Part shown: one piece after another, positions 43,573-48,996 of the stretch
Numbering within the stretch: position 1 is the first letter of the stretch
Layout of the letters: the number at the start of each line of letters is the position of its first letter
NCBI RefSeq assembly: GCF_039539965.1
Contig: NZ_BAABED010000001.1
Location: 744,001-808,000, forward strand
Source: Arthrobacter methylotrophus
GTDB lineage: Bacteria; Actinomycetota; Actinomycetes; Actinomycetales; Micrococcaceae
Direction: 5' to 3'
Length of the DNA stretch: 64,000 nt
Translations under genes and position numbers: made by a program
The notes under the pieces: generated by a model
The model's input: the letters and a program-made list of their open reading frames with translations, nothing else
What the model was told of the DNA's origin: nothing
The model's database searches: none

Positions 43573-44178
43573 ATGACTGTTTCAGCCGAACGCACCTCCC
43601 CGGCCGCACCGGCGGAAGGCCGCCCACGGGACCCCTTCATAGCCGCGATGGCAGTCGTGGCCACCGGGGTCACGGTGGTGGCCACCGACGGAGAAACGGG
43701 CCGTTTTGCCCAAACGGTGAGCGCCATGTGTTCTGTCTCGGCGGACCCCCGCCTGGTGCTGGTCTGCATCAACAGCCGGAGCCCCATCAACGACGCCATC
43801 AACACCAACGGGAGCTTCACCGTCAACGTGCTGGGGAGCCAGCACGATCACGTGGCCGACACGTTCGCAGGCCGCCCGTGGCCCGGGAAGGAGCCGTGGG
43901 ACTTCAGCTGCGGCGAGTGGGAGCAGGCGCCCTCCGGCTCCCCGCGAATCCGCGACGCCGTCGCCAGTTTTGATTGCCGTATCCACGAGGTAGTGGAGGC
44001 CGGCACCCACCGGATCTATATCGGCCTCGTCACCAGCGTCGAATCACACGGCGGGGATCCTCTGATCTACAGCGCACAGACCTATGCCAAACCCATTCCC
44101 GTCCCGCCGTCGGTCTTCGACGAGTACCCCGGATCGGGCCCGACGTACCGCAAGAACCCCAAGGAGAACGCCAAATGA
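43573..44178 (+). CDS. Flavin reductase for the HpaB-type monooxygenase
   Basis: This 201-residue protein has the flavin-reductase split barrel: PFIAAMAVVATGVTVVATDG, AQTVSAMCSVSADPRLVLVC and NTNGSFTVNVLG. Its stop overlaps the monooxygenase start (ATGA), so the two are made together as reductase and oxygenase components. The start is ATG 43573. Confidence 0.92.
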   Translation: MTVSAERTSPAAPAEGRPRDPFIAAMAVVATGVTVVATDGETGRFAQTVSAMCSVSADPRLVLVCINSRSPINDAINTNGSFTVNVLGSQHDHVADTFAGRPWPGKEPWDFSCGEWEQAPSGSPRIRDAVASFDCRIHEVVEAGTHRIYIGLVTSVESHGGDPLIYSAQTYAKPIPVPPSVFDEYPGSGPTYRKNPKENAK

Positions 44179-45635
44179 TCCGCACCGGAAATGAATACCG
44201 CGAGTCCATCCGCGACGGCCGCCAGGTCTGGATCAACGGGGAAAAGGTCGACGACGTCACCACACACCCCATGTTCAAACCGATCGTCGATGTCCGCGCC
44301 CGGATCTACGACCTGGCCCACGAAGAAGCCACGCAAAAGGTGATGACGTACGCCGATGAGACCACCGGCGAACTGAACGCAATCGCCAACCGGCTGCCGA
44401 AGACCCAACAGGATTGGGCCGACAAACGGGGCGCCGTGGATCTGGTCCAGCGCGAGGCCGGCGGCGTCGTCACCCGTGTCGGCGACGAGACAATCGGCGA
44501 AATGTGGTCACTCTTCGACGGCCAGGACGTCCTCAATGAGGTCGACCCGCGGTTCTCCGAGAACATACGCCGGCACATTGCGAAATCCATCACGGCCGAC
44601 CCCTTCCACGTTTCCGCCAACACGGACCCAAAGGGCGACCGCTCCAAGGCCCCGCAGGACCAGGACCCGGACATGCTGCTGCACGTGGTCCGCGAGACCG
44701 ACAACGGCATAGTGGTCCGCGGTGCCAAGTATGAGACGGCTGCCGCATACTCCAACCAGGCCTTCACCAAGCCGACGATCGCCAACTGGGGAAATAGCGA
44801 ACTCTCCGACTACGCCGTCGGATTTGTCATGGACATGGGCACGCCCGGGCTGAAGTTCATTTCCCGGAACGGCTTTGCCGGCAAGGGACCGTCGGACGAC
44901 TACCCCCTCTCGAACCGAGTGGACGAGGTGGAATCGCTGGTGGTGTTCGACGACGTCGAGATCCCCTGGGAGGATGTGCTCTTCTACCAGCACACCAAGG
45001 CCGCTGCATTCATCCGCTCCACGCTCCACCGTTACAGCGCGTTCCCTTTTGTCCAGCGCACCCTGCACCTCGCCGACCTCATGATCGGCGCGGCGCTGTG
45101 GAACGTGAAGCAGACGGGGCTGGAAAAGCAGCAGGCCGTCCAGGAGAAGCTGGCCCAACTAGCGTGCTACCGCGAAGGCATCAACGCCCACCTCACAGCC
45201 GCCATTGCCAATGCCGAAACCAGCCCTGGCGGCCTGCTGATGCCCAACCAGTCGCTGCTCTACGCAGGACGGGTGACCGCACTGTCCCAGCTTCCGGCCA
45301 TGATGCACATTGCCCGCGAACTGTGCGGCGGCCAGATCTGCATCACCCCTGACGCGGCCACGTTCAGCGACCCCGACGTGTCCCCGTGGCTGGAGAAGTT
45401 CTACTCCGTCAACGACAACTGGGTCTCGGAGGACCGCCGCAAGCTGCTGGCGTTTGCCCGCGACCTACTCAATAGCGACTATGCCGGGCACCGCCTGACC
45501 TTCCAGCTGTTTGCGCAGTCCCCGCCCTTCGCCCAATTGGGCGCCGTGTATCGAAACTTCGATTTCGACGGGCCGCTTGGCCTGGTCAAGGCCTCCGCGG
45601 GACTCTCCGACAAGATCCTGACCGGAACATTGTGA
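44175..45635 (+). CDS. 4-hydroxyphenylacetate 3-monooxygenase family oxygenase (HpaB-type)
   Basis: This 486-residue group D flavin monooxygenase starts MIRTGNEYRESIRDGRQVWI and contains HPMFKPIVDVRARIYDLAHE, PLSNRVDEVESLVVFDDVEI and the C-terminal LCGGQICITPDAATFSDPDV, all typical of HpaB, PvcC and chloro/nitrophenol monooxygenases. It uses reduced flavin from the overlapping reductase to hydroxylate an aromatic or heteroaromatic substrate. The substrate is unknown; none of the usual meta-cleavage genes (hpaD and so on) accompany it. Confidence 0.9.
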   Translation: MIRTGNEYRESIRDGRQVWINGEKVDDVTTHPMFKPIVDVRARIYDLAHEEATQKVMTYADETTGELNAIANRLPKTQQDWADKRGAVDLVQREAGGVVTRVGDETIGEMWSLFDGQDVLNEVDPRFSENIRRHIAKSITADPFHVSANTDPKGDRSKAPQDQDPDMLLHVVRETDNGIVVRGAKYETAAAYSNQAFTKPTIANWGNSELSDYAVGFVMDMGTPGLKFISRNGFAGKGPSDDYPLSNRVDEVESLVVFDDVEIPWEDVLFYQHTKAAAFIRSTLHRYSAFPFVQRTLHLADLMIGAALWNVKQTGLEKQQAVQEKLAQLACYREGINAHLTAAIANAETSPGGLLMPNQSLLYAGRVTALSQLPAMMHIARELCGGQICITPDAATFSDPDVSPWLEKFYSVNDNWVSEDRRKLLAFARDLLNSDYAGHRLTFQLFAQSPPFAQLGAVYRNFDFDGPLGLVKASAGLSDKILTGTL

Positions 45636-47588: not shown

Positions 47589-48996
47589 GGTTCGGCGAGA
47601 ACAAGATTTGATCGGTTGGCTGGATGTGCCGGCTGATGCTTACTATGGCGTCCACACCGTTCGGGCTAGCCTCAACTTTCCCATTTCCGGTGTCTCCATT
47701 GGCCTGTACACGCACTTTGTGGTGGCCCTGGCTGCGGTTAAGGAAGCAGCTGCGATCACCAACCATGAGCTAGGGCTGCTGGACGGTCCGCGCTCCCGCG
47801 CTATTGTGGCCGCGTGCCGCGAGATCCGTGCCGGAGGGCTGCACGAGCATTTCATTGTCGACGTCGTTCAAGGCGGCGCCGGCACTTCCACCAACATGAA
47901 CGCCAACGAGGTGATCGCCAACCGGGCCCTGGAACTGATGGGCGCGGAGCGCGGCCAGTACAGCGTGCTGCATCCGCTAGACCATGTGAACCTGGGCCAA
48001 AGTACCAACGACGTCTACCCGACCGCGCTGCGCGTGGGACTGCACCATGCGGCCGAGGACCTGCTGACTGCAATGGCCGGTCTGCGCCGATCCTTCGCGG
48101 CGAAAGCCGAGGAATTCGAAGACCACTTGAAAATGGGGCGCACCCAGCTCCAGGACGCTGTGCCGATGACCCTAGGTCAGGAATTTCGAACATTCGCGGT
48201 CATGATGGCCGAGGACGAACAGCGCCTGCGCGAGGCGATGGACCTGACCCGCGAAGTCAACCTCGGCGGCACGGCCATCGGTACGGGACTGAACTCCCAC
48301 ATCGACTACTCCCGGTTGGCCTGCCGGCGGCTGGCGGAGATTAGCGGTGTTCGGGTTGTCCCTGCCGGCGACCTGATTGAGGCGACGCAGGACGTGGGCG
48401 GACTAGTCCAGCTGCACAGCGTGCTCAAACGCATCGCCGTGAAGCTGTCCAAGGTGGCCAATGATCTGCGGCTGCTCTCTTCCGGCCCGCGCGCCGGGCT
48501 GGGCGAGATCCAGCTGCCGGCCGTGCAGGCCGGATCTTCGATCATGCCGGGCAAGGTCAACCCGGTGATCCCCGAGGTGGTGAATCAGGTGGCCTACTCC
48601 GTGGTCGGCAATGATGTCACCATCACGATGGCGGCCGAGTCCGGTCAGCTGCAGCTCAACGCCTTCGAACCCATCATGGCCCGTGCACTCTTCTCCTCCC
48701 TGGGCGAGCTACGGTCCGCCTGCACTGTGCTGGGTGAGCGCTGCGTGGACGGCATCACGGCAGACCCCGTTGCACTGCTGGCCACGGTGGAGCGGTCTAT
48801 TGGCCTGGTCACCGCGTTGGTGCCGTATCTGGGTTATAAGACCTCAACTGAAGTGGCACAACAAGCCATGGCCACGGGCGCAAGTGTGGTGGACGTTGTC
48901 CGCGAATCGGGTCTCATGAGCGACACTGAGCTGGCCGATGTGTTTGGCTCACCGCATCTTCTCACCGCACCCGGCATTCGGCTCGCGGTGCTCTGA
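47578..48996 (+). CDS. aspA: Aspartate ammonia-lyase or related fumarase-superfamily lyase
   Basis: This 472-residue protein has VVQGGAGTSTNMNANEVIAN, GQSTNDVYPTALRV, MGRTQLQDAVPMTLGQEF and the signature GSSIMPGKVNPVIPE with the catalytic serine. Sequence and length suit AspA. Other superfamily members cleave N-succinyl amines, so the substrate could be aspartate released by the M20 enzyme or an N-substituted aspartate. It is the last gene of the monooxygenase operon. Confidence 0.82.
   Translation: MSAEVRREQDLIGWLDVPADAYYGVHTVRASLNFPISGVSIGLYTHFVVALAAVKEAAAITNHELGLLDGPRSRAIVAACREIRAGGLHEHFIVDVVQGGAGTSTNMNANEVIANRALELMGAERGQYSVLHPLDHVNLGQSTNDVYPTALRVGLHHAAEDLLTAMAGLRRSFAAKAEEFEDHLKMGRTQLQDAVPMTLGQEFRTFAVMMAEDEQRLREAMDLTREVNLGGTAIGTGLNSHIDYSRLACRRLAEISGVRVVPAGDLIEATQDVGGLVQLHSVLKRIAVKLSKVANDLRLLSSGPRAGLGEIQLPAVQAGSSIMPGKVNPVIPEVVNQVAYSVVGNDVTITMAAESGQLQLNAFEPIMARALFSSLGELRSACTVLGERCVDGITADPVALLATVERSIGLVTALVPYLGYKTSTEVAQQAMATGASVVDVVRESGLMSDTELADVFGSPHLLTAPGIRLAVL

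What the first reader, a model, noticed from the sequence alone, without database searches (positions are those of the whole stretch)
43573..48996. Overlapping operon of HpaB-type monooxygenase, DUF1028, M20 amidohydrolase and aspartase
Overlapping starts couple most genes. Hydroxylation of an aromatic ring, amide hydrolysis and aspartate deamination together suggest degradation of an aromatic or heteroaromatic aspartate conjugate, a pathway I cannot match to a known one. It also gives DUF1028 a defined context.
Basis: inference. Interest (0 to 1): 0.75.

Follow-up and report, generated by a model that had tools for sequence, protein, structure and literature searches.

The report
Imidazole-breakdown operon with swapped oxygenase
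A soil actinobacterium carries an operon that probably breaks an imidazole acid down to fumarate like the known histamine-degradation route, but with an unrelated oxygenase at the first step and an enzyme of a still unassigned family (DUF1028) at a ring-opening or amide-cutting step.

Summary
The operon is real: flavin reductase, HpaB-type oxygenase, DUF1028, M20 amidohydrolase and aspartase at 43573-48996, with a LysR gene and a divergent M20/ABC arm that close relatives keep. It matches a known pathway. In 66 of 80 relatives a RidA gene lies between HpaB and DUF1028: oxygenase-RidA-DUF1028, the order of hinF-hinL-hinH in the published histamine route (imidazoleacetate to aspartate to fumarate), where Pseudomonas has an unrelated FAD monooxygenase first. 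Two Pseudomonas genomes hold a native-looking hin cluster with HpaB in the HinF slot and no HinF found: a natural swap. The phenol-binding triad Arg-Tyr-His of HpaB is Arg-Glu-Ser here. Best reading: HpaB/C hydroxylates imidazole-4-acetate or a close analogue; DUF1028 (a Thr2 Ntn-hydrolase) and M20 cut to aspartate; aspartase gives fumarate. Against strict equivalence: 4 of 9 HpaB-bearing genomes of the family also carry HinF; the window lacks RidA; the aspartase and transporter arm are rare outside the family. No substrate was tested. New variant of a known kind.

The parts
38777..40342 (-). ABC transporter permease-ATPase fusion (amino-acid type), divergent arm
   Evidence: Pfam BPD_transp_1 + ABC_tran; beside HpaB in 7 of 8 further family loci but at 40% or more in only 5 of the 80 wider loci; 53-55% identical to ABC genes of six Pseudomonas DUF1028 loci
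40345..41208 (-). Solute-binding protein, family 3 (start chosen by inference; the longest ORF runs to 41490)
   Evidence: Pfam SBP_bac_3; neighbour in 7 of 8 further family loci
41240..42385 (-). M20 hydrolase, ArgE/DapE type
   Evidence: Pfam and NCBIfam; only about 26% identical to the HinG-type M20
42493..43410 (+). LysR-type regulator between the two arms
   Evidence: Pfam HTH_1 + LysR_substrate
43573..44178 (+). HpaC/RutF-like flavin reductase, partner of HpaB
   Evidence: Pfam Flavin_Reduct; 4-nt overlap with HpaB
44175..45635 (+). HpaB-type flavin-dependent oxygenase; proposed imidazole(acetate) monooxygenase
   Evidence: Pfam HpaB_N + HpaB; below the 4-HPA equivalog cut-offs; triad R101/E105/S147
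45636..45693 (+). 58-nt gap; slot where 66 of 80 relatives have a RidA match (truncated in L014)
45694..46368 (+). DUF1028, Thr2 Ntn-type amidohydrolase; HinH counterpart
   Evidence: PF06267; 51% identical to DUF1028 of a hin-type Pseudomonas cluster; Thr2 in 73 of 73 aligned; PDB 2imh homologue
46365..47588 (+). M20D amidohydrolase, in the HinG slot
   Evidence: TIGR01891 above cut-off; solved relatives Xaa-Arg dipeptidase and HmrA; also in HinF-type clusters L174, L175
47578..48996 (+). Aspartate ammonia-lyase-like enzyme, HinI counterpart
   Evidence: PRK12273 above cut-off, aspA equivalog just below; a second, 62% identical copy elsewhere in the genome

Best explanation
The operon is a hin-like pathway for an imidazole acid, most likely imidazole-4-acetate (from histamine or histidine), in which the single-component FAD monooxygenase HinF is replaced by a two-component HpaB/HpaC system. 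Proposed steps: HpaC supplies reduced flavin; HpaB hydroxylates the imidazole ring to the imidazolone; DUF1028, through its N-terminal Thr2, opens the ring amide (or hydrolyses the next C-N bond) to give N-formimino- or N-formyl-aspartate; RidA, present in most relatives but lost here, would speed imine hydrolysis that can also run unaided; the M20D enzyme releases aspartate; aspartase gives fumarate and ammonia. The divergent ABC transporter and ArgE-type M20 would bring in and unmask the substrate. Shown: genes, order, conservation, homology, and the natural swap in two Pseudomonas. Inferred: the substrate, which enzyme does which hydrolytic step, and regulation by LysR.
For: Published order hinF-hinL-hinH-hinG, HinL an enamine deaminase, HinG and HinH amidases, HinI aspartase (passages). 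Of 20 fetched Pseudomonas DUF1028 loci, 13 have a HinF-like flavoprotein in one cluster with RidA, DUF1028 and M20; L142 and L148 add ALDH, APC permease and aminotransferase. By order this makes DUF1028 = HinH. In HpaB loci RidA matches in 74 of 80, DUF1028 in 75 of 80, RidA between the two in 66. In Pseudomonas L046 and L053 HpaB lies directly before RidA 87%, DUF1028 71-72%, M20 69-72%, with ALDH 78-79% and aminotransferase 86-88% identical to L142; in L046 all five are closer to the fetched Pseudomonas DUF1028 loci than to other HpaB loci; neither genome has HinF at E<=1e-40. HinF-RidA-DUF1028-M20D clusters in Arthrobacter L174 and Streptomyces L175 show the window's M20D in the HinG slot. 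The window's ABC gene is 54% identical to one that runs in a row with HinF, RidA, DUF1028 and M20 in L136. HinD-like ALDH (56-57%) lies downstream in 3 of 8 family loci and at 45% or more in 14 of 80. HutD near HpaB in 7 of 80 loci. Triad Arg-Glu-Ser in the 120 listed homologues; the two paralogues in the same genome keep Arg-Tyr-His.
Against: In the family, 4 of the 9 HpaB genomes also carry HinF, more than chance (P 0.004); of 14 HpaB-bearing genomes that I chose for, 4 hold HinF at 66-71%, 2 only a 38-41% match, 8 none. So HpaB/C may serve a different substrate. RidA is absent from the window; of three RidA-family genes in the genome the only one matching at 1e-6 is 27% identical. Aspartase is near HpaB in only 7 of 80 loci, the ABC arm in 5; 32 of 80 loci show neither M20 type; family locus L188 lacks both M20D and aspartase. 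No HinC/HinD in the window; no HinD-like ALDH of 50% or more in six stretches around the genome's amine oxidases. HinC-like aminotransferase at 45% or more in 2 of 80 loci. The P. putida Hin sequences were not compared; the paper naming them was not read.
Confidence: 0.6

Rival explanations
1. Same core (DUF1028-M20-aspartase) but the HpaB/C substrate is another N-heterocyclic acid, for example an N-methylated or otherwise substituted imidazole acid, that likewise ends in aspartate.
For: HinF and HpaB coexist in 4 of 9 family genomes and in Mesorhizobium L077/L176, Arthrobacter L014/L174, Ancylobacter L081 and Streptomyces L020/L175. Neighbours of HpaB vary: Rieske oxygenase in 13, OYE-type amine dehydrogenase in 9, purine/cytosine-type permease in 12 of 80 loci.
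Against: The in-place swap inside a Pseudomonas hin cluster with its own aminotransferase and aldehyde dehydrogenase and no HinF found.
Confidence: 0.25
2. One reading: the operon degrades an aromatic or heteroaromatic N-acyl aspartate, with the M20 enzyme cutting the conjugate and HpaB hydroxylating the aromatic part.
For: Some M20 enzymes hydrolyse N-acyl amino acids (recalled); an aspartase is in the operon; two M20 genes flank the regulator.
Against: HpaB lacks the phenol-binding Tyr and His; the M20D is far from IAA-amino acid hydrolase; no genes for the fate of a released aromatic acid lie in the operon; the hin match accounts for each gene of the operon.
Confidence: 0.07
3. HpaB/C is an ordinary 4-hydroxyphenylacetate (phenol) hydroxylase that happens to sit with amino-acid genes.
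For: Pfam HpaB domains; source names call relatives 4-hydroxyphenylacetate 3-monooxygenase.
Against: 228.8 and 164.2 bits against equivalog cut-offs 480.2 and 885.2; triad changed; RidA and DUF1028 matches beside it in 74 and 75 of 80 loci.
Confidence: 0.03

Closest known systems
hin pathway (histamine/imidazoleacetate to fumarate), Pseudomonas putida U; putative in Brevibacterium
   Same: Oxygenase first, then DUF1028 (HinH by order), an M20 amidase in the HinG slot and an aspartase (HinI)
   Different: HpaB/HpaC instead of the single-component HinF; M20D instead of the ArgE-type HinG; RidA (HinL) missing; own transporter arm; no HinC/HinD in the window
HpaB/HpaC, two-component 4-hydroxyphenylacetate 3-monooxygenase
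   Same: Domain family, reductase partner, Arg of the substrate triad
   Different: Tyr to Glu and His to Ser in the substrate site; below equivalog cut-offs; different gene neighbours
SPO2555 (PDB 2imh), SCOPe d.153.1.7, Thr Ntn-hydrolase
   Same: Homologous over residues 1-196 (E 1.4e-18), Thr at the same N-terminal place
   Different: SPO2555 has no known substrate (PMC9140057 passages); here the family has a pathway context
Xaa-Arg dipeptidase (PM20D2, name recalled) and HmrA M20 peptidases
   Same: Best solved-structure relatives of the M20D gene
   Different: Here an N-formyl or N-formimino aspartate is proposed as substrate

Membership tests
hin (histamine/imidazoleacetate) pathway | Single-component FAD monooxygenase HinF in the first slot | tested here: not met
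   No HinF in the window genome at E<=1e-40 or at 1e-100 with an actinobacterial query; HpaB/C in the slot
hin (histamine/imidazoleacetate) pathway | RidA (HinL) after the oxygenase | tested here: not met
   Absent from the window; between HpaB and DUF1028 in 66 of 80 relatives
hin (histamine/imidazoleacetate) pathway | HinH amidase (DUF1028) | tested here: met
   51% identity to DUF1028 of hin-type Pseudomonas clusters; that HinH is DUF1028 rests on gene order, the P. putida sequence was not compared
hin (histamine/imidazoleacetate) pathway | M20-type HinG | tested here: inconclusive
   M20D instead of ArgE-type; M20D fills the slot in HinF-type clusters L174, L175
hin (histamine/imidazoleacetate) pathway | Aspartase HinI | tested here: met
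   Aspartase-like gene at 47578-48996; Brevibacterium HinI locus tag follows its HinF tag
hin (histamine/imidazoleacetate) pathway | Growth on histamine or imidazoleacetate | not testable with these tools
   needs culture
4-hydroxyphenylacetate 3-monooxygenase (HpaB equivalog) | Score over TIGR02309 or TIGR02310 cut-off | tested here: not met
   228.8 of 480.2 and 164.2 of 885.2 bits
4-hydroxyphenylacetate 3-monooxygenase (HpaB equivalog) | Substrate triad Arg-Tyr-His | tested here: not met
   Arg101-Glu105-Ser147; alignment, triad from PMC10816480 passages, conservation
HpaB/HpaC-type two-component flavin monooxygenases (superfamily) | HpaB_N and HpaB domains plus a flavin reductase gene | tested here: met
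DUF1028 / SPO2555 Ntn-hydrolases | PF06267 and N-terminal Thr | tested here: met
   211.5 bits; Thr2 in 73 of 73 aligned; the fold search could not be run
Aspartate ammonia-lyase | aspA equivalog TIGR00839 | tested here: inconclusive
   628.1 of 681.2 bits, but PRK12273 subfamily 697 over 510
IAA-amino acid (auxin conjugate) hydrolases | Close relationship of the M20 to ILR1-like enzymes | tested here: not met
   E 3.2e-7 against 5.9e-71 for Xaa-Arg dipeptidase

The most novel reading that the evidence does not exclude
HpaB/C is a two-component flavin monooxygenase that acts on imidazole, not on phenols, and RidA-DUF1028-M20 is a portable ring-to-aspartate core served by two unrelated oxygenases (HinF flavoproteins and HpaB/C); DUF1028, an orphan Thr Ntn-hydrolase subfamily, is its ring-opening amidohydrolase.
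Probability: 0.42. Interest if true: 0.72.

Novelty: new variant of a known kind. Interest (0 to 1): 0.58.

Why it matters
It gives a substrate hypothesis to an Ntn-hydrolase subfamily that a 2022 review lists as uncharacterised (PMC9140057 passages), predicts a new activity for oxygenases that source databases name as phenol hydroxylases, and turns both into simple enzyme assays. It also widens the set of bacteria likely to degrade histamine-derived imidazoles.

Tried and rejected
Homarine degradation was considered and dropped: the search listing showed no matching operon. A universal link to histamine through HinC was dropped: HinC-like aminotransferases of 45% or more occur in 2 of 80 loci. 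Strict one-for-one replacement of HinF everywhere was rejected: 4 of 9 family genomes carry both. The chance that both HpaB-bearing Pseudomonas lack HinF is 0.095 from base rates alone, so the argument rests on gene position and companion identity. DUF1028 identity does not separate types of Pseudomonas locus (51% to both). A third, PhyH-based oxygenase type was first inferred from loci cut short at the edge and then dropped: HinF (61-70%) lies in the same locus or just beyond in 5 of 6 such loci (L129, L132, L136, L138, L144; not found within the stretch fetched for L130). That M20D and HinG-like M20 (24 loci each) never share one of the 80 loci is confounded with taxonomy, since M20D is in actinobacterial loci and HinG-like M20 in others. 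E105 and S147 lie in the two seed patterns, so their 80 of 80 conservation is by construction; the count used is the 120 listed hits plus the 61% homologue. The promoter scan was at chance level (2 found, 1.2 expected).
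Full report
What is there. The window holds, on +, an HpaC/RutF-like flavin reductase (43573-44178), an HpaB-type oxygenase (44175-45635), DUF1028 (45694-46368), an M20 amidohydrolase (46365-47588) and an aspartase (47578-48996). Three of four junctions overlap; a 58-nt gap separates HpaB and DUF1028. A LysR gene (42493-43410) precedes it, and an ArgE-type M20, a solute-binding protein and a permease-ATPase fusion are transcribed away on the other strand. The genome has 5.08 Mb, one DUF1028 and three HpaB-family matches, of which only this one is beside DUF1028.

Conservation. By tblastn 75 of 80 have DUF1028 (74 within 5 kb), 74 of 80 RidA (all 74 within 5 kb; one, L014, truncated), 67 of 80 HpaC, 24 of 80 the window's M20D and 7 of 80 the aspartase. 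RidA lies between HpaB and DUF1028 in 66 of 80. The name RidA rests on PF01042 in a Pseudomonas relative. RidA is missing in the window and in L013, L015, L020, L049, L086, L091. M20D and HinG-like M20 (35% or more) occur in 24 loci each, never together; 32 loci have neither. The ABC arm is found at 40% or more in 5 of 80.

In 245 sampled genomes of the window's family this HpaB occurs in 9, DUF1028 in 35, HinF-like flavoprotein in 21; DUF1028 lies within 0.7 kb of HpaB in 9 of 9 and within 10 kb of HinF in 18 of 21; 27 of 40 DUF1028 matches (one a fragment) lie within 10 kb of either. Of eight further family HpaB loci, seven keep the divergent ABC-SBP-M20 arm and LysR, seven M20D, six aspartase (L188 has neither M20D nor aspartase, L185 no aspartase), four RidA, and three a HinD-like aldehyde dehydrogenase (56-57%) downstream.

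Match to a known route. Passages of PMC8231116 and PMC6467879 describe the hin genes: hinFLHG turn imidazoleacetate into aspartate, which becomes fumarate; HinF FAD monooxygenase EC 1.14.13.5, HinL enamine deaminase, HinG EC 3.5.1.8 amidase, HinH amidase, HinI aspartase, HinD aldehyde dehydrogenase, HinA permease, HinC aminotransferase. The original paper (de la Torre 2018) was not read. DUF1028 occurs in 182 of 249 sampled Pseudomonas. Of 20 fetched loci, 13 hold a HinF-like flavoprotein in one cluster with RidA, DUF1028 and M20; 5 have ABC, PhyH, SBP, aldolase, DUF1028, M20 with RidA on a divergent arm, and HinF beyond that RidA in 4 of these 5; 2 (L139, L140) have a divergent DUF1028 alone. 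L142 and L148 add aldehyde dehydrogenase, permease and aminotransferase. By order and by the named functions of its neighbours, DUF1028 is HinH. In L136 an ABC gene 54% identical to the window's stands in a row with PhyH, SBP, aldolase, HinF, RidA, DUF1028 and M20, which ties the window's transporter type to a HinF route too.

The swap. Of 249 Pseudomonas, 172 carry HinF (E<=1e-120; at most six candidates scored per genome) and 2 carry the window-type HpaB. In these two (L046, L053) HpaB, with HpaC divergent, sits directly before RidA, DUF1028 and M20, with aldehyde dehydrogenase and aminotransferase behind, at 69-88% identity to L142. In L046 all five companions are closest to the fetched Pseudomonas loci and less similar to other HpaB loci. 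Neither genome shows HinF at E<=1e-40. Thus HpaB/C seems to have entered a native hin cluster in place of HinF. In Actinobacteria HinF-RidA-DUF1028-M20D clusters exist (L174, L175), tying the window's M20D to the same core.

Residues. The substrate triad of Thermus HpaB, Arg100-Tyr104-His142 (PMC10816480 passages), aligns to Arg101-Glu105-Ser147. Arg-Glu-Ser is kept in the 120 listed homologues and in the 61% homologue; the paralogues L002 and L003 of the same genome keep Arg-Tyr-His. An acidic residue suits an imidazole, not a phenol; this is inference. DUF1028 has Thr at position 2 in 73 of 73 aligned sequences (two of the 75 loci fell below the length cut), is homologous to PDB 2imh, and models at mean pLDDT 95.6. 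PMC9140057 passages list 2imh/SPO2555 as an uncharacterised Thr Ntn-hydrolase subfamily; the terms DUF1028, PF06267 and COG3342 occur in no paper of the library. I ran no search that pairs HpaB with imidazole, so I make no claim about print there.

Doubts. Four of nine family HpaB genomes also carry HinF, more than chance (P 0.004). Of 14 HpaB genomes that I picked, four hold HinF at 66-71% (Mesorhizobium, Arthrobacter, Ancylobacter, Streptomyces), two a 38-41% match, eight none. The window has no RidA; of three RidA-family genes in the genome only one matches at 1e-6, at 27%. The genome has several copper amine oxidases, which could make imidazole acetaldehyde from histamine, but no HinD-like dehydrogenase of 50% or more was found in six stretches around them; the whole genome was not searched for HinD. 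So imidazole-4-acetate is the likeliest substrate, not a shown one.

Verdict.

Noticed in passing
L129, L130, L132, L136, L138, L144 (unnamed Pseudomonas): A variant DUF1028 setting, with HinF found near 5 of the 6, that adds an ABC fusion (53-55% to the window's), PhyH dioxygenase, SBP and class II aldolase; what PhyH and the aldolase do upstream of the ring oxygenase is unexplained.
   Followed up: partly
L072:12609-14057, L074:16854-18305: Second HpaB copies, 300 and 322 identical residues of 486 to the window's, near the first copy.
   Followed up: no
L062, L066, L067, L075, L077, L087, L089, L092: HutD and FAD synthetase-like genes in HpaB loci; by blastp with a 60% length cut HutD in 7 and FAD synthetase in 10 of 80 (L077 HutD falls below the cut).
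   Followed up: no
G000 contig C1 near 67, 85, 89, 2140, 4051, 4296 and 4307 kb: Several copper amine oxidase genes, four with equal scores, suggesting recent duplication; the one near 89 kb looks split in two.
   Followed up: no
L139, L140: Divergent DUF1028 proteins (101-107 bits, 40-41% to L142) without RidA, M20 or oxygenase of the set in the fetched stretch.
   Followed up: no
L014:11464-11760: Truncated RidA between HpaB and DUF1028 in a strain that has an intact RidA in a nearby HinF arm (L174).
   Followed up: partly
L147:5525-6823: An ISL3-family transposase gene lies between RidA and DUF1028 of a HinF-type cluster.
   Followed up: no
window 49200-51280: GntP-type gluconate permease next to a small kinase-like ORF downstream, on the other strand; probably unrelated to the operon.
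   Followed up: no
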